A program made the translations under genes and the position numbers. From the NCBI GenBank assembly GCA_903939115.1, contig CAJAFV010000077.1:1-64000 (forward strand): a stretch of 64,000 nucleotides of DNA, written 5' to 3'. A model generated the notes under the pieces. The model had not been told where the DNA came from. It did not search any database and saw only the letters and a list, made by a program, of their open reading frames with translations. How positions within the stretch are numbered: position 1 is the stretch's first letter; each line of letters starts with the position of its first letter. Positions 27,579-42,650 of this stretch are shown here, piece after piece. The DNA is from an uncultured Geobacteraceae bacterium. GTDB lineage: Bacteria > Desulfobacterota > Desulfuromonadia > Geobacterales > Pseudopelobacteraceae.

Positions 27579-27617
27579 CAAAAAAAGGCCAACCAATATA
27601 TGGTTGACCTTTTTTTC
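27579..27617 (-). terminator. Terminator, probably the original tRNA-Met terminator displaced by the island
   Basis: A strong hairpin (AAAAAGG-C-CAACCA against TGGTTG-A-CCTTTTT) with T-runs on both sides lies 4 bases outside the left attachment site. Read leftward it directly follows the copy of the tRNA 3' end, which is where the tRNA transcript would have ended before the island entered. That history is inference; the hairpin is seen directly. Confidence 0.75.
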
Positions 27618-27620
27618 TCG

Positions 27621-27635
27621 AATGGTGGGGTGCAG
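27621..27635. other. Left attachment site (attL), degenerate tRNA 3' end
   Basis: 15 bases equal to the 16-base tRNA-Met 3' end at 42635 to 42650 except for one missing C. Identity stops on both sides, as expected at a recombination core. Confidence 0.65.
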
Positions 27636-27722: not shown

Positions 27723-27838
27723 TATTTTGTGTACGTGGCATTATGCCATAATTTCTTCTGTATAAAAAACACAAGCATCATCCTTTGAGCACGATAAGAA
27801 AGTCCGCCCCTGAATATAATCAAGAGCGGCCTTCTCCC

Positions 27839-28345
27839 CTATAGCAACCCCCTCTCTGTAAAAGAAAGATAGGTACCATCGCCAACTATAATATGATCCA
27901 GCAAACGAATCCCCATCAGTTCCCCGGCTTCGCTCAACCGTTTGGTAATGGCAATGTCTTCACTGCTTGGAGTCGGGTCACCGGTAGGGTGATTATGTAC
28001 ACAAATGATTGCCGCCGCTGACGACAGGCAAGCTGTCATAAATACAGAACGTGGATGAACTATGGACTGGTTGAGACTGCCTACGCTTACCAAGTCCATA
28101 CAGATAATACGATTTTTACCGTCAAGGTGTAGGGTGATAAATTGCTCCTTTGGTTCCTTCATCAGGAACTGGAATGTATCTGATACCTGCTGCGGTGCTG
28201 TGTAGCGTTGTCCGGTCTTCAAGTAGTCAGTAATCTCTTCCTTAACGGCCAAAGTCTCATACACAGCTTTTATCTGCTTGAACTTGATAGTGCGTGGCTT
28301 GGTGGCAACAGTCTCTGCTCCGAATAATGTATCGATGGTTGTCAT
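27839..28345 (-). CDS. radC: RadC/JAB-domain protein
   Basis: 168 residues. The JAB/MPN metal site is intact: VHNHPTGDPTPSSEDI with the HxH and distal Asp, and a VGSLNQSIVHPRSVFMTA segment before it. Chromosomal RadC is about 225 residues and has an N-terminal helix-hairpin-helix; this short form without it is the version usually carried by mobile elements. The family was once linked to repair, but its function remains unsettled. It is the leftmost gene of the island. Confidence 0.9.
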   Translation of the reverse strand: MTTIDTLFGAETVATKPRTIKFKQIKAVYETLAVKEEITDYLKTGQRYTAPQQVSDTFQFLMKEPKEQFITLHLDGKNRIICMDLVSVGSLNQSIVHPRSVFMTACLSSAAAIICVHNHPTGDPTPSSEDIAITKRLSEAGELMGIRLLDHIIVGDGTYLSFTERGLL

Positions 28346-28430
28346 GTTCGTATTCTCCTTTTTAGATAAAAATATAGGGGACGTGTGACCGCCCCCATGT
28401 TAATAAAACCGGCTGGTATGTTGCTGGCTT

Positions 28431-28778
28431 TCAGTTCATATACTCCCTGAACTTCTTGACGATATTCATCGGTGCGGCATCCCTCCAGTTGTTCCCAAAA
28501 TATGATTTGAGGTTCCACTCGCTATCGACAAAGATACTTTCCTGCTCCTCGCCGGTAGTTGCATCGAACACCTCTAACCCGGCATACTCGAATCTGTAAT
28601 TGATACTTAGAACAAAAAGCTGGGCTTCCTCTTTGAAGACGTGTATCTGATCGCTTCTGCCGGCTGCGATAGGAATAACTACTCCCTGCAGCTCAATCAC
28701 GCTGCCTGCATTGATGAGTCTGGTTGTCCTGACCTCCTCCGGCGTTATCAGTCTGATTCTTGGTTTAATTGTCGTCAT
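28431..28778 (-). CDS. Island protein of unknown function (115 aa)
   Basis: No family recognised. The protein is soluble, with strands such as AGSVIELQGVVIPIAAG and FVLSINYRFEYAGLEVFD and an acidic middle (TTGEEQESIFVDSEW). It ends NIVKKFREYMN. It lies between radC and a cluster of very small genes in the same orientation with short gaps, so it is probably cotranscribed with them. Confidence 0.65.
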   Translation of the reverse strand: MTTIKPRIRLITPEEVRTTRLINAGSVIELQGVVIPIAAGRSDQIHVFKEEAQLFVLSINYRFEYAGLEVFDATTGEEQESIFVDSEWNLKSYFGNNWRDAAPMNIVKKFREYMN

Positions 28779-28846
28779 GGCGTCTCCTCCTTTTGTTTGT
28801 TAAATGAAGAGGGCGAAAGTTTGTGTCTCCCGCCCTCGTGGTTTAC

Positions 28847-28954
28847 TTATGACTCCCGCATGGTGAAGCAAACGAAACATTTGCCTTCGCCGTCATCCAC
28901 GGTATAAGCCTGGCACTCATCGCACCAAAAATACATTTGCCAGCTTTTGCTCAT
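28847..28954 (-). CDS. 35-aa Cys-rich miniprotein (zinc-ribbon-like)
   Basis: Reads MSKSWQMYFWCDECQAYTVD followed by DGEGKCFVCF and ends MRES. CDEC and CFVC, 14 residues apart, form a candidate four-Cys zinc site. Its 5' end overlaps the next gene upstream by 38 bases. It is one of three tiny Cys-pair proteins in this 2-kb stretch, which supports it as a real gene. Function unknown. Confidence 0.55.
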   Translation of the reverse strand: MSKSWQMYFWCDECQAYTVDDGEGKCFVCFTMRES

Positions 28955-29120
28955 CTGTTTCTCCCGTTATAGATAAATTTTGCAATCGTTCTACAAACTC
29001 AAATGCTTCAGTTTTGCTTTGACAGTGATGAGGCTGACCATTTATCAGCGCAACCCAGCCAGGGGCTTTGTTCTTGTAGTACCTGCTGGCTTTGATTAGT
29101 TCGTAGTGGAATCGCCTCAT
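28917..29120 (-). CDS. Island protein of unknown function (67 aa)
   Basis: Small basic protein starting MRRFHYELIKASRYYKNKAP with GWVALINGQPHHCQSKTEAFEFVERLQ in the middle, a pattern of two strands and a helix. No family recognised. It overlaps the 35-aa gene downstream. Confidence 0.5.
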   Translation of the reverse strand: MRRFHYELIKASRYYKNKAPGWVALINGQPHHCQSKTEAFEFVERLQNLSITGETDEQKLANVFLVR

Positions 29121-29208
29121 GGCTACCTCCAGATACGCACAAGGGACATTGGCCTGTGTAAGCCGATGCCCCTGTGCGCCAGTTATATTTTGTTTTCAGT
29201 TTGTACGA

Positions 29209-29562
29209 TTACGCCATCTCAGCGATAATCTCCTCCGCTGCGTGTATCGCCAGTTCATCCATGAAATTACTCGGAAGCATCGAAACCACTTTTCCGGCGA
29301 TTTCGCTCATGTCGCAATTATCAGCAACAGCTTGCCGGATGTCGTCCATGTCGAGGTGATCTGTAATATCAGAGATGATGTCGGACTGATCTATTTCGTC
29401 CGCAATATCAGAACTGCTGATATTAAGGTCTGATGCGATGTCGGAGTAATCCAGATTATCGAGTACGGCACTCGCTACTTCACGGACAAGGGTACTGTCG
29501 TTTGCCACTTTATACGCCACGTTTGCTTTCAACTTTTCCATCATCATTTGCTTGAAGTCCAT
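29209..29562 (-). CDS. Acidic protein with repeated Asp-Ile motifs
   Basis: 117 residues, not recognised. From about residue 35 to 80 it is strongly acidic with a recurring (S)DI pattern at 4- to 8-residue steps: YSDIASDL, SSDIADEI, QSDIISDITDHL, MDDIRQAV, then MSEIAGKVV. That spacing suggests a run of short amphipathic helices with an acidic face. Its place next to ArdC raises the possibility of a DNA-mimic type anti-restriction protein, but this is only suggested by charge and context. Confidence 0.65.
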   Translation of the reverse strand: MDFKQMMMEKLKANVAYKVANDSTLVREVASAVLDNLDYSDIASDLNISSSDIADEIDQSDIISDITDHLDMDDIRQAVADNCDMSEIAGKVVSMLPSNFMDELAIHAAEEIIAEMA

Positions 29563-29651
29563 TGTTCTCTCCTTATTGGTGGGTTAGATACGCAAAGAGG
29601 CACTGCCGGTGATGGCGTTGCCTCTGTATTCGCTCGTTATGTGTTTGGTTA

Positions 29652-29768
29652 TTATGGTTTGTCAGCACAACTCCAGCAGTAGATGTGTCCGTTTACAAAT
29701 ACCCAAGGATAAGACCCCCTTTCACCGGAGTCTTCCAGCTCATTCCTGCACTCATAGCAGCAGATCAT
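29652..29768 (-). CDS. 38-aa Cys-rich miniprotein (zinc-finger-like)
   Basis: Reads MICCYECRNELEDSGERG followed by YPWVFVNGHIYCWSCADKP. CYEC and CWSC form a four-Cys site with a 24-residue loop, as in short treble-clef or ribbon modules. Its ATG overlaps the ArdC-like gene's stop (ATGA), so it is translated directly after that gene. Confidence 0.6.
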   Translation of the reverse strand: MICCYECRNELEDSGERGSYPWVFVNGHIYCWSCADKP

Positions 29769-30637
29769 GCCTCAGCCTCCACTTCATCAGGTTGTACGTT
29801 AAGGATATAATCTGCGGCCTTGTGTCCCTGTGCTGCGGCGTGAACAAGTAAAGTTCTGTCGTTCTTCAAGGCTCTAAGCCAACCTTGAATATAAGCAGCA
29901 CTGTTTTCGATGGTGCTGTTCACGATACCAGCATGACCGCAGAGGAACGCGGCACCTGTCTCCGCTATGAGTTCTTCACGGCTGTATTCGTGGCTGCCGA
30001 AGTATGACGGTTCCATTATAGACTTCCTGGCAAGTCTCTTGGCATGGCCGCTGGCGTGGCAAGCCTCATGGAATAGAGTGTTGTAGTATTCCGCCTCGGA
30101 ATCGAATGCTGTATTCTTCGGCAACTGAATATAATCAAGGGTCGGACTGTAGTAGGCTCTGTTGCCGCCATACTTAATTTCAGGCTTCATCGGCATACCC
30201 AGAAATATATTTTCAGCCGATTCGATAGGAGTAAATGGATTACTTACCTCATCAATCGGCGGAGTTATTATGTCTTCACACTGCTCAGCATTGAAAACGC
30301 TGTAGTACCTCAGCAAGGGTATTTTGCCAGTTGTAGCGTTGTCGCTGACGGTATCATCCTTGTCGAGCATCTTCCAGAATATTACTGGCGTGGATTTCTC
30401 ACCTTTCTTGACGTGGCCTCCTAGGTCTGTCGCCTGCTTGTAAGTCATCCAATACGGTGAGCTGAATGGCTGGCAGGCAAGCATGAACAGATTGACTCCA
30501 CGATAGCCTTTCTTGCTGATAAGATTCTTCGGTATTGAAGTTGTACTCTGCCAAGGCTTCTTCCAGGGTACGGTTCCTGCTGCCAAAAGATCCATAATCT
30601 TGTCGTTAATCATGTCGTACACTTTACTGTTCCCCAT
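29765..30637 (-). CDS. ArdC-like antirestriction protein with zinc peptidase domain
   Basis: 290 residues. The N-terminal ssDNA-binding domain (ArdC_N, about 1 to 115) has VYDMINDKIMDLLAAGTVPWKKPW, GYRGVNLFML and YWMTYKQATDLGGHVKKGEKSTPVIFW. The C-terminal domain (about 160 to 270) has the zinc-peptidase motif HEACH in YYNTLFHEACHASGHAKRL and a later SREELIAETGAAFLC. ArdC proteins protect incoming plasmid or phage DNA from restriction. Its strong conservation here shows the element is built to enter restricting hosts. Confidence 0.9.
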   Translation of the reverse strand: MGNSKVYDMINDKIMDLLAAGTVPWKKPWQSTTSIPKNLISKKGYRGVNLFMLACQPFSSPYWMTYKQATDLGGHVKKGEKSTPVIFWKMLDKDDTVSDNATTGKIPLLRYYSVFNAEQCEDIITPPIDEVSNPFTPIESAENIFLGMPMKPEIKYGGNRAYYSPTLDYIQLPKNTAFDSEAEYYNTLFHEACHASGHAKRLARKSIMEPSYFGSHEYSREELIAETGAAFLCGHAGIVNSTIENSAAYIQGWLRALKNDRTLLVHAAAQGHKAADYILNVQPDEVEAEA

Positions 30638-30673
30638 AACGATCTCCTTTCTGTTGGTTTGTGCTTCTGGTAA

Positions 30674-30706
30674 TAAAAAAGCCGATACCTCGTTGTGAGA
30701 TACCGG
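30674..30706 (-). terminator. Terminator after the 66-aa Cys protein gene
   Basis: On the minus strand GCCGGTATCT pairs with AGGTATCGGC around a short loop and is followed by TTTTTTATT. It separates the 66-aa gene from the ArdC-like unit. Confidence 0.8.
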
Positions 30707-30751
30707 CCTGGTGAACGGTTGCGTATGCTGACTGATACGCTGGGAAAGGTA

Positions 30752-30952
30752 TTAGTATCCTGCTGCCACAACGGCACTTTCCATCAGCGCATCATAAGCA
30801 GCTTCTTCCTGGGCTATCAGCAAGTAATAAGCTGCCTCTTCCTTTGCTGACAAATCCAAAGGCTCTGGTTCGCAGTCTCCGCATACTGGACACTGTTCCA
30901 TCTGATAATCTTCATAGCGATAGATCACCATTTCAACATTACATGGACACAT
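30752..30952 (-). CDS. 66-aa Cys-rich island protein
   Basis: The start at 30952 is fixed by a GGAGGA ribosome-binding site. N terminus MCPCNVEMVIYRYEDYQMEQ followed by CPVCGDCEPEP, so two Cys pairs near residues 2 to 4 and 21 to 26. The second half is acidic/Ala-rich helical (KEEAAYYLLIAQEEAAYDALM). No family recognised. The gene has its own terminator. Confidence 0.65.
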   Translation of the reverse strand: MCPCNVEMVIYRYEDYQMEQCPVCGDCEPEPLDLSAKEEAAYYLLIAQEEAAYDALMESAVVAAGY

Positions 30953-37340: not shown

Positions 37341-37550
37341 CTATTGCGCTATATCTGGCTTAACCTGCCATGCCTCAACAATCTCACGGCGGGCATTTTC
37401 AATTGCCAGCTTCAACTCCTTCAATGAACGGACTTCTGTTCAACACCATGACCTTCTGGACCGCCTGTTCGATGTGATACGAAATATTTTTCCGGCGGCC
37501 AGGTAAGCTCTTCTTTCTGGGTACGCTGCCAACATAATTATTATGCTACC
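37341..37550 (-). pseudogene. Possible frameshifted small gene downstream of the primase-helicase
   Basis: Two reading frames on the minus strand join into one sensible protein: RKKSLPGRRKNISYHIEQAV and then, one frame over, RSLKELKLAIENARREIVEA, ending VKPDIAQ. Neither frame alone has a start and a full length. The pieces could be a decayed DNA-binding or accessory protein. Low confidence; a sequencing error would look the same. Confidence 0.3.
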
Positions 37551-40072
37551 TCCGGGACAAAATCAGATTCATTGAAAGAGATAATGTCGAGAGTCACATT
37601 ACCCGTCATTTCGTCATCTCCCTTATAGGGAGAGATGACGGATGACGGTTGGTAATGCCCGTCATCTTTCTGCAAAAATGACGGTAAAATGACGGATGAC
37701 GGTTCAGGCATTACTAAGGTTACAAGATTGTTAATTTCACGGATCGATTGTTTTTCTGTGAGACTCTTGAATGCGTTCAAGTAAGCGTTTTTGATAGTAT
37801 TGGTTTTGTCACCAGGTTTTAATGTCCGCCGCTTGGCGTAAAACTGTTCGCGTAAATCATCAATTAAGATTCCGGTTGGTTCGGCCTCAAGCAGGTTGAC
37901 AATAAACTTCTCTTGAACGGTGTAAACAGGCTTGATGTGTTTTACAGACCTCTCCCCATACTCAACAATGCATGAGGTAATGGGAATACCATTATTATCA
38001 GTCCCACCGGTTTCAACCTGGACTAGCTTAAACTCTAGTGGTGGCGGTGGTTCGCCGTCCTTCAGCTTTGTATAAGTGAGCAAACCTTTGTTGCAGAGGA
38101 TTTCAAAATCACAAGCGGCTTTCAGTGCCGACGATCCCCGTGATCGTCCTGACTTCTCTGCATCGTTACCCGTATGATGTACGATAATGATTGTTGATTC
38201 TGGGAATTCTTCACGTAAGCTGTCGGCAATGTAGACGAAATATGACATCTCTTTGGTGCTGTTTTCATCTCCCTTGATATGACGCGCTAATGTATCAACA
38301 ATAATCAGTGCAACCTTTTTACCGGACTGCTTTTCAAGTTCTCGCGCTTGCTGAACAGAAGGAGTTAATTCAGCTAGTTCGAATTGGATGGCTTGGCGGG
38401 TTGTATGGAAAAGGGGAGGGTCAAGCTTACCGTGCTTGAGTAACCATGCTTTAACACGACGACGTAAAGCTATGTTTCCTTCTCCAGAGTAATACAGCAC
38501 TATGCCCTGGTCGCATGGTGTACCATTCCAAGGCGTGCCATTAGCTATTGAAAGAGCCATGTCCAGAGCAACAAAAGATTTTCCATCCCCAGAAGGGCCG
38601 AACAGTTGCCCGGTGGTTCCAGCCTCAATAATGCCTCCGAGGATAGTATCTTTCTCGTCAGGCAGTAACAGCAAATCGGCTACAGAAATAAATGGTTCAT
38701 CCTTGACTGCAGTGGGAAAAATGCCGGTTGGAGTGGTAGAGGGTGTTTTAACCTGTTCTCCATACCCGAGCGTTGCAAGCTCCAGAGCTGCGGCAGAATA
38801 GTTACCACCGTGGTGAACCAGAGCATAGGCACTGAACGGACTGTAACTCTTTCCGCATTCAAACGGCAACGCTTCGGCTGAGCTTGTAAGGCAGTAGAAA
38901 ACTCCTGACTCATCAAAGACGGTTCCAGAGATACCGCTCTGTTTGCCGGGGCGGGTATAGTGCGTTTTACCCTCTTCTTCTTCTGAGAGCGTCCAGCCTT
39001 GTGACAGCAGTATCGGGCCACAAAATTCACGGCTGTTGTAATCATCGCCTGGACGAGTACCTGTAATACTTACAGCATCTGTTGAAATATTTTCTGGCTG
39101 TATGTCGATCTCTGCAGGTAGTGACGGAAAATCAGCGGCTTCAAGAGGGATACCAGTAATGTGTCGATACTGATAAAACTCTTCTCCGCCTGGTGGGCAT
39201 GCTGGTGTATAGAACAGTTGCGCCGGTTTCCGTGACGCAGGGTCGATATTACCAATACGATCATCAAAAAAATCAATGATCCTCTCCAGAGCTGTTTTTA
39301 AAACCTTTTTACCATCCCCTATTATGGGCGACTGCAGGAGGATGTAGGCGCGATACTTCGGTTTTTCAATAGAATGACTGTATGAGGTATGAACGACACA
39401 TTCATAAACTTTCAGTAGGTTGCAGAGTTCATCAAAGGTGTATTTACTTTCGTCAATGTCGAGAGGAATAATATGCAACTCTGACATGTCGGCAAGCTTC
39501 TTTGTACCGGGTCGTGAGAATTTACCGGCGAATATTGCAGTACCATCTTTCTGTTTATCGCGAATACTTTTCTCTGCTGAATTATATTCATGCAGAGGAA
39601 GCGCGCCTCTAACCTCCGGTGTCTGAAAAGCCGCGACAAACTCATTCCATGCGACACTGACAACCACCGGGTCTGTGTCAGAGTATGAAGTTACTTTACT
39701 TATTGTTATGATAGGTGAGATGTCGCCGGGGTAAACAACATCTTCACTCTGAACTGTGGCGACTGCATGAACAAATTCCGGCTTAGAACCATTCTCTGCA
39801 ATTTGATCTAATTCAAGGTCATGGAGTTGATCTACTTCAACCTGTAGCTGGTCTGTGGTCGTGGATGGCTCAAGGAACGCCACAATTTTTGCTTTGTTCC
39901 AACCATGCGTCCCCTGTTGTATGGGTGTTGTCGGTATATTTTCTTTTTTTGCCTTAGCTACTGCAAGAGCACGTAGTTCTGGTAATGCCTTAGATTTAAG
40001 GCACTCACAATGCTGCAGGGTCGGTACAAGCGAAATAGATGGTTTGGTAATTGTGGTGGCAGTCTTACGCAT
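37541..40072 (-). CDS. Primase-helicase replication protein
   Basis: 843 residues from ATG 40072, preceded by AGGGGG. The N-terminal half looks like a PrimPol-type domain: PLDIDESKYTFDEL, VVHTSYSHSIEKPKYRAYILLQSPI, NIDPASRKPAQLFYTPACPPG. The C-terminal half is a RepA/DnaB-like AAA_25 ATPase: Walker A GPSGDGKS, Walker B VALIIVDTLARHIKGDE, then TIIIVHHTGND and SRGSSALKAACD. Elements with integrase and AlpA commonly use such a protein to replicate once excised. Its start overlaps the 86-aa gene upstream by 8 bases. Confidence 0.85.
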   Translation of the reverse strand: MRKTATTITKPSISLVPTLQHCECLKSKALPELRALAVAKAKKENIPTTPIQQGTHGWNKAKIVAFLEPSTTTDQLQVEVDQLHDLELDQIAENGSKPEFVHAVATVQSEDVVYPGDISPIITISKVTSYSDTDPVVVSVAWNEFVAAFQTPEVRGALPLHEYNSAEKSIRDKQKDGTAIFAGKFSRPGTKKLADMSELHIIPLDIDESKYTFDELCNLLKVYECVVHTSYSHSIEKPKYRAYILLQSPIIGDGKKVLKTALERIIDFFDDRIGNIDPASRKPAQLFYTPACPPGGEEFYQYRHITGIPLEAADFPSLPAEIDIQPENISTDAVSITGTRPGDDYNSREFCGPILLSQGWTLSEEEEGKTHYTRPGKQSGISGTVFDESGVFYCLTSSAEALPFECGKSYSPFSAYALVHHGGNYSAAALELATLGYGEQVKTPSTTPTGIFPTAVKDEPFISVADLLLLPDEKDTILGGIIEAGTTGQLFGPSGDGKSFVALDMALSIANGTPWNGTPCDQGIVLYYSGEGNIALRRRVKAWLLKHGKLDPPLFHTTRQAIQFELAELTPSVQQARELEKQSGKKVALIIVDTLARHIKGDENSTKEMSYFVYIADSLREEFPESTIIIVHHTGNDAEKSGRSRGSSALKAACDFEILCNKGLLTYTKLKDGEPPPPLEFKLVQVETGGTDNNGIPITSCIVEYGERSVKHIKPVYTVQEKFIVNLLEAEPTGILIDDLREQFYAKRRTLKPGDKTNTIKNAYLNAFKSLTEKQSIREINNLVTLVMPEPSSVILPSFLQKDDGHYQPSSVISPYKGDDEMTGNVTLDIISFNESDFVPEVA

Positions 40073-40325
40073 GACGTACCCCCTGCCGGTTGCGGTGGTC
40101 ACGAATACGGTCGCCTATGTACCTACATGCGGCAACAAACGACTGAACAGGTACGCCTCTGTTCCCCATGTAATCTTTACATGATGTTTCAAGTTCGGGT
40201 GTCCAAGCGAATTCTGCATCCAGTCCGCCATCCGGACGAGGTACAAAATTGCAGGTAAAGCCGTATGCCAATAGATAAGCTGTGTTGTTTCTGTCCTTAA
40301 TCGTCAGTGTCTTTGTCGGGTTCAT
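40065..40325 (-). CDS. DUF5659-like small island protein
   Basis: 86 residues: NTAYLLAYGFTCNFVPRPDG, then a Trp and Cys-containing middle (AWTPELETSCKDYM) and a terminal helix FVAACRYIGDRIRDHR. The first half resembles DUF5659-type small proteins as recalled. It lies between the AlpA-like gene (2-base gap) and the primase-helicase (8-base overlap), the usual position of small replication accessory proteins. Confidence 0.55.
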   Translation of the reverse strand: MNPTKTLTIKDRNNTAYLLAYGFTCNFVPRPDGGLDAEFAWTPELETSCKDYMGNRGVPVQSFVAACRYIGDRIRDHRNRQGVRHA

Positions 40326-41191: not shown

Positions 41192-42457
41192 TTATGCAGC
41201 AATCTTCTTAAACGGTATTACCTTCGCCCCTAGCTTCAGGCCGTCCAGATATTCAGACCAGACCTCCATCATCTTCTTGCGTTCTGGTAGGTGGCTGGTT
41301 CTGTTGTAAGCACGCCCTAGTGCGTCACGGACCGCGTGTGCGAGCTGGTGTTCGATGTAGTCAGGGCGGAAGCCTAACACCTCATCAAGGATCGTTCTTG
41401 CGCAAGCTCTGAACCCGTGCCACGACATTTCATCTTTATATCCCATCCGGATAAGTGCTGCTGTAATAGCTCCTTCACTCATTGGTTTTAGTGGTGTGCG
41501 GTGGCCGGGGAAAATAAATTTGCTGTGACCTGTAAGTGGCTGGAGCTGTCGCAAAATATCAACCGCCTTCCTGCTTAACGGAATACAGTGAAACTCTCCT
41601 TTTCGTTTTGCCTTTTCTTTTGCAGTTAGCTTCATGCGTTCCACAGGGATATTCAGCTCAACGGTTTCAAAATCCACCTCACTCCATTCGGCTTTTCTCA
41701 AGTCGCCGGGACGGCAAAACCATAAAGATGCGAGTTGCATAGCGCACTTGGTGACGAAAGATCCCTTAAACTCGTCTATAGCGCGCAGGAGATGCGTTAA
41801 TTCTTTTGGGTCTGTTATTGCGGGGAGATGGTGCTGTATTGGATCAGTTGTCAAAATATCTCTTGGTTTCAAACCTTCCAATGGGTTCCGATCAATGCGT
41901 TCAGTCGCAACACAATAACGCAAGATCATATTCAGGCTTACATAAATCCTACGCGCAGATTCGGGTGCGCGCTGTTCTACCCTGTGTAAAACTGACTTAA
42001 TATCTGTCAATCTGATCTCAGTAACAGGTTTTGCACCGATCCAAGGGAAAATATTTTTTTCGAGGCGTTCGAGTGTTGTTTTAGTGTGGCTGCCGGACCA
42101 TGTAGCCGAATTGATTGTGTGCCATGCTCTTGTTATGACTTCAAAAGAGTTGTTGTTCTCGGCATGGACTGATGCTTTCTGGGCTTTCTTAATCTCGCCG
42201 GGGTCAATGCCATTCGCCAGCAGCTTCTTTGCTTCCTCCCGGCGTTGTCTGGCATCGGCAAGGGATAGGGTAGGGTATGCACCAAAAGAGGTTGTTTTAC
42301 GCTTATCGTTGAAGCGGTAATCCATTCGCCATAGCTTGCCTCCGGTTGTGGTGACCAGCAGATACAGTCCCCCACCGTCAGCAATCTTGTAATCGCTCTC
42401 TTTTGGCTTGTAGTTCTTAACTTGGATATCAGATAAAGGTGCAATCCTTTTAGGCAT
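41192..42457 (-). CDS. int: Tyrosine recombinase (P4-type integrase)
   Basis: 421 residues from ATG 42457, which has AAAGGAG; an upstream frame to 42568 overlaps the candidate arm sites and is unlikely. The N-terminal DUF4102 arm-binding domain has IADGGGLYLLVTTTGGKLWR and LADARQRREEAKKLLANGIDPG; a SAM-like core-binding domain follows. The catalytic domain has Arg in LWFCRPGDLRKAEW (where TGxR is commoner), SWHGFRACART with H-x-x-R, and QLAHAVRDALGRAYNRTSHL with the terminal His and nucleophile Tyr. It acts on the tRNA-Met 3' end 180 bases away. Confidence 0.93.
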   Translation of the reverse strand: MPKRIAPLSDIQVKNYKPKESDYKIADGGGLYLLVTTTGGKLWRMDYRFNDKRKTTSFGAYPTLSLADARQRREEAKKLLANGIDPGEIKKAQKASVHAENNNSFEVITRAWHTINSATWSGSHTKTTLERLEKNIFPWIGAKPVTEIRLTDIKSVLHRVEQRAPESARRIYVSLNMILRYCVATERIDRNPLEGLKPRDILTTDPIQHHLPAITDPKELTHLLRAIDEFKGSFVTKCAMQLASLWFCRPGDLRKAEWSEVDFETVELNIPVERMKLTAKEKAKRKGEFHCIPLSRKAVDILRQLQPLTGHSKFIFPGHRTPLKPMSEGAITAALIRMGYKDEMSWHGFRACARTILDEVLGFRPDYIEHQLAHAVRDALGRAYNRTSHLPERKKMMEVWSEYLDGLKLGAKVIPFKKIAA

Positions 42458-42474
42458 GGCGTTTTCTCCTTTTT

Positions 42475-42528
42475 GGCGGTATCCACTTTGATGGTTTGAC
42501 GGTATACCGTCACGAATACCGCCAAAAC
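42475..42528. promoter_or_regulatory. Integrase arm-type sites, right end
   Basis: GGCGGTAT at 42475, GACGGTATACCGTC centred near 42504, and AATACCGCC at 42515 form a set of repeated half-sites in both orientations just upstream of the integrase start. The unit at 42504 to 42527 matches 27699 to 27722 at 21 of 24 bases. Confidence 0.55.
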
Positions 42529-42576
42529 TCGTGGATTCAGCCATATCATAATGAACTAGGTTGGACAATAGATATA

Positions 42577-42634: not shown

Positions 42635-42650
42635 AATGGTGGCGGTGCAG
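42635..42650. other. Right attachment site (attR), 3' end of tRNA-Met
   Basis: The 16 bases include the encoded CCA and the 3' acceptor strand. The left copy at 27621 to 27635 lacks one C. Integration leaves this tRNA whole. Confidence 0.65.

What the first reader, a model, noticed from the sequence alone, without database searches (positions are those of the whole stretch)
28847..30952. Three tiny four-Cys proteins interleaved with ArdC
Genes of 35, 38 and 66 residues (28847, 29652, 30752), each with two Cys pairs, lie in one 2.1-kb stretch around the ArdC-like gene. The 38-aa gene overlaps the ArdC stop by ATGA, so it is translationally coupled to it. Miniproteins of this kind are easily missed in annotation and could be ArdC partners or anti-defence factors.
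Basis: partly seen in the sequence, partly recalled or inferred. Interest (0 to 1): 0.6.

Follow-up and report, generated by a model that had tools for sequence, protein, structure and literature searches.

The report
Tiny zinc-finger proteins paired with ArdC
A small mobile DNA island in a Geobacter-like bacterium carries very small, probably zinc-binding proteins, one of them apparently made together with the anti-restriction protein ArdC; relatives of that pair persist under selection in related bacteria, so these look like real genes, most likely helpers in getting past host DNA defences, though what they do is untested.

Summary
On the minus strand, ORFs of 35, 38 and 66 aa flank an ArdC gene, and the 38-aa ATG overlaps the ArdC stop (ATGA). 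Three such Cys-motif ORFs in 2.2 kb exceed chance (0 of 2000 shuffles gave two). Seven are intact, differ mainly at third codon positions and carry a Shine-Dalgarno; one is broken. The 35-aa frame recurs at three other sites, the 66-aa at one.

Related ArdC-RadC islands carry other tiny four-Cys families. One overlaps the RadC stop in 16 of 28 loci. Four-Cys mini-ORFs: 30 sense, 4 antisense in 26 loci I chose; 16 and 5 in 29 unselected ArdC loci.

The 38-aa model resembles half a LIM domain (treble clef). No library family covers them at its cut-off.

Most likely they are accessory establishment/anti-defence factors, the 38-aa one acting with ArdC. That is inferred: 70 of 80 named ArdC loci show no such neighbour, one intact 38-aa gene sits beside a truncated ArdC, and zinc binding and expression are untested.

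The parts
30752..30952 (-). 66-aa protein, CxC...CxxCxxC plus a C-terminal helix; upstream of ArdC
   Evidence: GGAGG 4 nt upstream; 58% identical relative (residues 1-52) upstream of the second ArdC in the same genome; Zn_ribbon_TFIIB 16.9 bits against a cut-off of 22
30679..30709 (-). terminator-like hairpin in the ArdC leader
   Evidence: leader folding z below -2 in 14 of 20 ArdC loci examined
29765..30637 (-). ArdC (ArdcN ssDNA-binding domain + MPTase-PolyVal zincin domain with HExxH)
29776..29780 (-). GGAGG Shine-Dalgarno inside the last ArdC codons, 7 nt before the 38-aa ATG
29652..29768 (-). 38-aa protein (family F1), predicted treble-clef finger Cx2C-x23-Cx2C, ATGA overlap with the ArdC stop
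29596..29625 (-). intergenic hairpin between the 38-aa and 117-aa genes
   Evidence: a matching hairpin follows the 38-aa gene in the second island of this genome
29209..29562 (-). 117-aa protein, only a sub-threshold ArdA match (E 0.043)
   Evidence: family in 4 of 26 loci, one a remnant
29136..29179 (-). intergenic hairpin before the 67-aa gene
28917..29120 (-). 67-aa protein, one Cys, overlapping the start of the 35-aa gene; absent from the third island of this genome
28847..28954 (-). 35-aa protein (family F2), Cx2C-x11-Cx2C
28809..28837 (-). hairpin before the 115-aa gene
28431..28778 (-). 115-aa protein of unknown function, family in 12 of 26 loci
28377..28396 (-). hairpin before RadC
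27839..28345 (-). RadC (JAB domain)
27580..27616 (-). strong terminator-like hairpin after the RadC end of the gene group
37541..40102 (-). AAA_25 ATPase of the same presumed mobile element (RepA-like by recall)
41192..42568 (-). tyrosine integrase (Arm-DNA-bind_3, Phage_integrase) beside a tRNA gene

Best explanation
Shown: the stretch is an ArdC-RadC gene group next to mobile-element genes, and the 38- and 35-aa ORFs are conserved under protein-level selection (the 66-aa one less surely). The 38-aa gene is placed to be translated straight after ArdC by stop-start coupling. Inferred from the model and the Cys pattern: the 38-aa protein is a single zinc-bound treble-clef finger. Inferred: ArdC protects incoming DNA of the element against host restriction (known for plasmid ArdC, PMC7213743). 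The 38-aa finger is made in a set ratio with ArdC and works beside it, most likely by binding ArdC or its DNA complex and adjusting its DNA-binding or protease activity. The 35-aa protein, and in relatives the RadC-coupled finger, are separate accessory factors of the same establishment module, swapped in and out as cassettes.
For: The 8 copies of the 38-aa family in 141 genomes all lie beside ArdC or an ArdC remnant (6 and 2); ATGA overlap in 5 of 7 intact copies, Shine-Dalgarno 6-7 nt upstream in 7 of 7. Invariant C4, C7, L11, Y20, W22, Y30, C31, C34. In three separate pairs, 42 of 75 differences fall at the third codon position (P 4.6e-5 against one third); dN 0.155 against dS 0.756 for the window and its sister copy. 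The family sits behind ArdC in two separate ArdC groups of the tree. Model pLDDT 82.5 with hairpin-then-helix order; PDB neighbours mostly LIM domains, best TM 0.70 by query length but E 0.71. A different 60-aa four-Cys ORF holds the same ATGA place in G024. Another finger family overlaps the RadC stop in 16 of 28 loci.
Against: No experiment or interaction evidence of any kind. 70 of 80 named ArdC loci show no such neighbour downstream, and 20 of 29 ArdC loci in the own family's genomes show no four-Cys mini-ORF nearby. None of the 12 other members of the window's ArdC group in the tree has the 38-aa gene, though for some little downstream DNA was held. In G038 the 38-aa gene is intact although its ArdC is only a C-terminal piece joined to an integrase (recombination or assembly fault not told apart). 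In 2 of 7 intact copies another 67-74-aa ORF lies in between and itself overlaps the ArdC stop. No ArdC-finger fusion in 160 loci. Stop-start overlaps are common in compact mobile DNA (recalled).
Confidence: 0.42

Rival explanations
1. Independent anti-defence microproteins: each finger inhibits a different host restriction or defence protein. They share the operon with ArdC because all must be made right after entry, and the set rotates through an arms race.
For: Families differ between islands at the same places and are narrowly spread: 38-aa in 7 of 141 genomes of the order, and only the own genome among 395 of the phylum sample; RadC-coupled finger family in 26 of 141, and 1 of 395. Two islands of the same genome differ by gain or loss of a block holding the 35-, 67- and 117-aa genes. 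An intact 38-aa gene beside a truncated ArdC. ArdC lies among highly variable establishment genes in pLS20-type plasmids (passages of PMC8708921).
Against: No copy of the 38-aa family was found away from ArdC or an ArdC remnant (8 of 8), more than a freely moving inhibitor would need. No Lar or PADLOC defence model matched the three proteins.
Confidence: 0.35
2. RNA- or DNA-binding regulators of the island: the fingers bind the hairpins that precede most genes here and set termination or translation, in the manner of the small zinc protein Com of phage Mu (recalled).
For: Strong hairpins, some terminator-like, lie in the gaps before the 117-aa, 67-aa, 115-aa, RadC and ArdC genes; leader folding reaches z below -2 in 14 of 20 ArdC loci against 2 of 20 coding controls.
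Against: Such hairpins also occur at ArdC loci where no finger was seen (for example L004, L009, L068); they vary in sequence; no RNA family matches. Nothing ties a finger to a hairpin.
Confidence: 0.12
3. Passenger genes: small translated zinc-finger proteins of mobile DNA with no functional tie to ArdC, adjacent only because mobile elements are compact.
For: Four-Cys mini-ORFs also follow ArdC in 11 of 70 viral loci with 1 kb or more downstream (not compared with each other). In the 29 unselected ArdC loci of the own family the sense excess is modest: 16 against 5 ORFs, 9 against 5 loci.
Against: Persistent adjacency of the 38-aa family with ArdC across two ArdC groups, and of the other finger with the RadC stop.
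Confidence: 0.11

Closest known systems
Plasmid ArdC (R388/pSa), solved as 6SNA
   Same: The window ArdC has both ArdC domains and matches 6sna/6i89 over residues 6-278.
   Different: A coupled finger gene is not mentioned in the passages read of PMC7213743; here ArdC sits in a RadC island of an integrase-bearing element.
Establishment regulons of pLS20-family plasmids (PMC8708921, passages read)
   Same: ArdC lies among highly variable genes, most of unknown function.
   Different: Bacillus conjugative plasmids with promoter-repressor or long repeated leader sequences; the word zinc does not occur in that main text.
Lar/Ral restriction-alleviation proteins (recalled)
   Same: Small proteins of mobile DNA; Lar carries Cys pairs (recalled).
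   Different: No Lar Pfam match to the three window proteins; only a chance-level Lar-like PHROG match (E 0.24) for the relative of the 66-aa protein.
One-domain zinc-finger micro-proteins of Haloferax (PMC6562870, abstract read)
   Same: Single-domain zinc-finger proteins under 70 aa with their own genes.
   Different: Haloarchaeal; the abstract names no tie to ArdC or RadC; the match to the solved small CPxCG protein 8q5b is at noise (E 1.1).
Polyvalent proteins (PMC5512222, passages read)
   Same: ArdC-N, MPTase and RadC/JAB domains meet in mobile elements.
   Different: There the domains are fused in multidomain proteins; here they are separate genes with separate tiny fingers. 'Zinc ribbon', 'treble clef' and 'small protein' do not occur in that main text.

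Membership tests
ArdC anti-restriction family (window 29765-30637) | ArdcN domain plus MPTase-PolyVal domain over the curated cut-offs | tested here: met
   115.1 bits (cut-off 22.6) and 129.4 bits (cut-off 27.5)
ArdC anti-restriction family (window 29765-30637) | zincin active-site HExxH | tested here: met
   H190, E191 and H194 invariant in 22 aligned sequences
ArdC anti-restriction family (window 29765-30637) | protection of transferred DNA from restriction | not testable with these tools
   needs a conjugation or restriction assay
RadC (window 27839-28345) | RadC-like JAB domain over the cut-off | tested here: met
   PF04002 148.1 bits against 22.1; TIGR00608 143.3 against 133.85; the stricter equivalog model NF000642 is not reached, 155.2 against 180
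Treble-clef zinc fingers (38-aa protein) | two conserved CxxC pairs | tested here: met
   invariant C4, C7, C31, C34 in 7 sequences
Treble-clef zinc fingers (38-aa protein) | knuckle, beta hairpin, helix carrying the second Cys pair | tested here: inconclusive
   model has strands 22-25 and 28-31 and helix 32-35, pLDDT 82.5 but pTM 0.51; LIM neighbours with E 0.71 or worse
Treble-clef zinc fingers (38-aa protein) | zinc bound | not testable with these tools
   needs metal analysis of the peptide
Zn_ribbon_TFIIB (66-aa protein) | score over the Pfam cut-off of 22 bits | tested here: not met
   16.9 bits; its relative 18.2 bits
Lar restriction-alleviation family | match to the Pfam Lar model | tested here: not met
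   no Lar model among matches up to E 1 for the three proteins (HMMER filters drop most weak matches)
ClpX zinc-binding domain | sequence-profile similarity to the ClpX finger | tested here: not met
   hhalign probability 4.2, 9 columns, against the ClpX-type finger of the same genome
ArdA (117-aa protein) | score over the Pfam cut-off of 27 bits | tested here: not met
   14.9 bits

The most novel reading that the evidence does not exclude
A slot system in Geobacterales mobile islands: interchangeable four-Cys microproteins, each stop-start coupled to one of two metalloenzymes (ArdC or RadC) and carried on cassettes bounded by leader hairpins, act as plug-in specificity subunits that tune ArdC and RadC against the defences of the current host.
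Probability: 0.2. Interest if true: 0.78.

Novelty: new variant of a known kind. Interest (0 to 1): 0.5.

Why it matters
ArdC lets plasmids enter restricting hosts (PMC7213743), and the listings and the passages read named no partner protein for it. A conserved, translationally coupled microprotein gives a direct candidate that can be deleted without touching ArdC. The RadC-coupled finger offers a similar handle on RadC, whose role in DNA repair is disputed (passages of PMC5512222). None of the families tested has a match over cut-off in the libraries searched, so they would be easy to overlook.

Tried and rejected
Known-family assignment: no match over any curated cut-off for the 35-, 38- or 66-aa proteins in Pfam or NCBIfam, only weak hits in PHROGs (E 0.057 or worse) and none in PADLOC; related fingers likewise in Pfam and PHROGs.

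ClpX-finger mimic: suggested by two 'ZBD' chains among the Foldseek neighbours (that these are ClpX is recalled). Rejected by profile comparison with the one ClpX-type finger of the own genome.

Rosetta-stone test: no ArdC in 160 loci carries a CxxC tail or a four-Cys head.

Wider spread of the 38-aa family: no relative confirmed in viral contigs, no match in plasmids, only the own genome among 395 genomes of the phylum sample. RadC-coupled finger: no match in plasmids. Phage records were not searched for the fingers.

RadC regions of two Desulfuromonadia plasmids (pPRO1, pSD): no related finger by the pattern used; the one hit in pSD (12251-12409 of L264) lies away from RadC.

Known RNA for the leader hairpins: only tRNA, plus two sub-threshold matches over the tRNA genes, up to E 1; the radC and STAXI motifs of PMC2864571 (passages read) did not appear.

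Integration boundary: the direct-repeat search gave no clear att pair. A short partial match to the tRNA 3' end near 27621-27635 needs a one-base gap, so the ungapped search reported only the tRNA site. Not claimed.

Structure of the 66-aa protein from one sequence: pLDDT 66.6; only the C-terminal helix is usable.

Limits of the counts. The 26 loci were picked by me; L224, L225, L226 and L231 came in through finger hits or a partial ArdC, and about a dozen same-family ArdC loci were left out. The unselected set (29 of the 30 loci, L030 overlapping L028) gives the smaller excess: 16 sense against 5 antisense ORFs, 9 against 5 loci. In one search the pattern missed the RadC-coupled finger of L065 and L067, which one search lists. 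The 28 loci are 28 of 30 fetched (two short partial matches dropped) of 36 matches; in 7 of the 28 my ORF finder saw no such finger, and several are close relatives. The codon test used three of the 21 pairs, sharing no sequence. The tree count leaves out 13 unlabelled rows, some lying inside the groups.

I lowered the best explanation from 0.45 to 0.42 and raised two rivals by 0.01-0.02.
Full report
Setting. The window lies in a 4.76-Mb, 99-contig genome. Its nearest named ArdC relatives come mostly from Geobacterales/Desulfuromonadales such as Geotalea, Geomonas and Geobacter; a few are metagenome bins under other names (Falkowbacteria, Clostridia), which may be binning faults (inference). 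The stretch belongs to a region of lower GC that also holds an AAA_25 ATPase, an HTH regulator and a tyrosine integrase beside a tRNA-Met gene, so I take it as an integrated mobile element. No clear att repeat was found.

Observation. On the minus strand the order is 66-aa, ArdC, 38-aa, 117-aa, 67-aa, 35-aa, 115-aa, RadC. The 35-, 38- and 66-aa ORFs are at the stated places, and the 38-aa ATG shares ATGA with the ArdC stop. Two of the three have five Cys; the ones kept in relatives are four. Three such ORFs in this stretch are beyond chance (none of 2000 shuffles had even two). Each tiny gene has a Shine-Dalgarno-like sequence 4-7 nt upstream; that of the 38-aa gene, GGAGG, is written into the last codons of ArdC.

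Conservation of the 38-aa frame. A profile of seven members (A2) finds 8 copies in 7 of 141 genomes of the order, all in the same genus, and only the own two copies among 395 genomes of the phylum sample. Six lie beside full-length ArdC. In G038 an intact copy lies beside a C-terminal ArdC piece joined in frame to an integrase. In G021 the copy is broken by a stop codon and lies beside an ArdC remnant. Of the 7 intact copies, five overlap the ArdC stop by ATGA; in the two others (G037, G038) a 67-74-aa ORF without the Cys pattern takes that place and the 38-aa gene follows. All 7 have AGGAG or GGAGG 6-7 nt upstream. Between three independent pairs, differences by codon position are 21, 12 and 42 (P 4.6e-5 for the third against one third); the window and its sister copy give dN 0.155 and dS 0.756. 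The ArdC tree puts six bearers in two separate groups (two label changes at least, 13 unlabelled rows not counted; 7 of 500 shuffles as low), so the gene was either lost in between or moved while keeping its place.

The other two. The 35-aa family occurs at four sites: the window, a third RadC island of this genome (no ArdC found in the 9 kb held), and the ArdC contigs of G047 and G024. Window against third island: differences 2, 2 and 16 by codon position, a strong sign of protein-level selection. Five further hits (G001, G002, G011, G048, G049) score E 0.0069 or worse and were not counted. The 66-aa protein has one relative, upstream of the second ArdC of the same genome (58% over 52 residues); third positions differ most there too (17, 14, 39). 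This is the weakest of the three.

Beyond the given coordinates. In 26 ArdC/RadC loci that I chose, four-Cys ORFs number 30 on the sense strand against 4 antisense over 84,290 bases; 16 of 26 loci have one, against 3 of 26. In the 29 unselected ArdC loci of the own family's genomes the figures are 16 against 5 ORFs and 9 against 5 loci, so the excess seems to belong to one part of the ArdC tree rather than to ArdC in general. Clustering finds four such families in three or more loci: the 38-aa, the 35-aa, a 47-76-aa one (EDYYPPDD) and a 68-110-aa one with the motif HGIRYG; the 66-aa, a 60-aa and several 36-53-aa ORFs come on top. The HGIRYG family is in 26 of 141 genomes and 10 of 29 genera of the order, and in 1 of 395 of the phylum sample, itself of this order. 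In 28 loci examined, 20 have RadC on the same strand within the fetched stretch and 16 show a stop-start overlap with RadC. An ordinary Shine-Dalgarno was seen in 6 of these 16, most others having a G-rich stretch instead. So ArdC and RadC each have a stop-start coupled finger in part of the loci. Further away such neighbours are uncommon: 10 of 80 named ArdC loci have one within 1.5 kb downstream, 7 of the 10 being of the Geobacterales-like set, and 11 of 70 viral loci with 1 kb or more downstream do.

Cassette exchange inside one genome. The window and the second island align over 27789-28792 and again over 29596-30805; the block between, with the 35-, 67- and 117-aa genes, is absent from the second island. 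In the third island the 35-aa gene follows directly where the 67-aa gene stands in the window, the junction lying at the start codons; its 117-aa gene is a remnant.

Fold. The 38-aa model (three sequences; pLDDT 82.5, pTM 0.51) has a beta hairpin followed by a helix at the second Cys pair. PDB neighbours by Foldseek are mostly LIM domains, best TM 0.70 by query length, but with E-values of 0.71 or worse, as one may expect for 38 residues. Weak Pfam hits are RING-type fingers, below cut-off. I read this as a single treble-clef finger; zinc binding is inferred.

Function. Plasmid ArdC binds ssDNA, has a metalloprotease domain and is needed in the recipient to get past HsdRMS (title and passages of PMC7213743). 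RadC-type JAB domains share mobile elements and fusions with ArdC-N domains (passages of PMC5512222), and ArdC sits among variable establishment genes in Bacillus plasmids (passages of PMC8708921). On this background the fingers most likely serve establishment. For the 38-aa protein the constant tie to ArdC favours an ArdC-linked role, the G038 case speaking somewhat against; for the others, swapping and narrow spread favour independent inhibitors. None of this has been tested by experiment.

Novelty. Searches of the paper library for ArdC with antirestriction or metalloprotease, ArdC with zinc ribbon or small protein, zinc-finger small proteins with restriction alleviation, Geobacter with antirestriction or genomic islands, radC with antirestriction and small zinc and leading-region anti-defence showed, in the listings seen, no description of these families or their coupling; the library lacks most subscription journals. 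In the leading-region anti-defence paper (PMC11541004) the words zinc, ArdC and RadC do not occur in the main text.

Verdict. A real and slightly larger phenomenon than reported: new microprotein families in a known kind of module, limited to one bacterial order as far as seen, with an untested function.

Noticed in passing
window 28377-28396, 28809-28837, 29136-29179, 29596-29625, 30679-30709 (minus strand): Strong hairpins lie in the gaps before most genes of the group; leader folding of ArdC reaches z below -2 in 14 of 20 loci against 2 of 20 coding controls, sequence varying, no Rfam match. The one before ArdC looks like a terminator with little room for a promoter before the start codon, so attenuation or a single-strand promoter is conceivable.
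   Followed up: partly
L233, L236, L239, L259, L260, L240, L241, L243, L244, L245, L262, L248, L249, L250, L254, L255: A second four-Cys protein family (motif HGIRYG) overlaps the RadC stop codon by a stop-start pair in 16 of 28 loci of the order.
   Followed up: yes
L032 155-1270 (G038): An ORF joins integrase domains in frame to the C-terminal part of the ArdC protease domain, directly before a 74-aa ORF and a 38-aa-family gene; a recombination product or an assembly fault.
   Followed up: partly
L070, L078, L093, L223, L225: A 118-120-aa family ending in CxxCPDA...C.H...C is a further Cys protein of these islands; the member tested has no Pfam match up to E 1.
   Followed up: no
L227, L226 and window 27789-30805: Three RadC islands in one genome differ by gain or loss of small genes, one junction at the start codons.
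   Followed up: partly
window 27621-27635 and 42635-42650: Short near-match to the tRNA-Met 3' end at the far side of the presumed element, a possible att remnant; needs a one-base gap and was not confirmed.
   Followed up: partly
window 29209-29562: 117-aa acidic protein with sub-threshold matches to anti-restriction ArdA in Pfam (E 0.043) and an anti-restriction PHROG (E 0.05); could be a distant DNA mimic.
   Followed up: no
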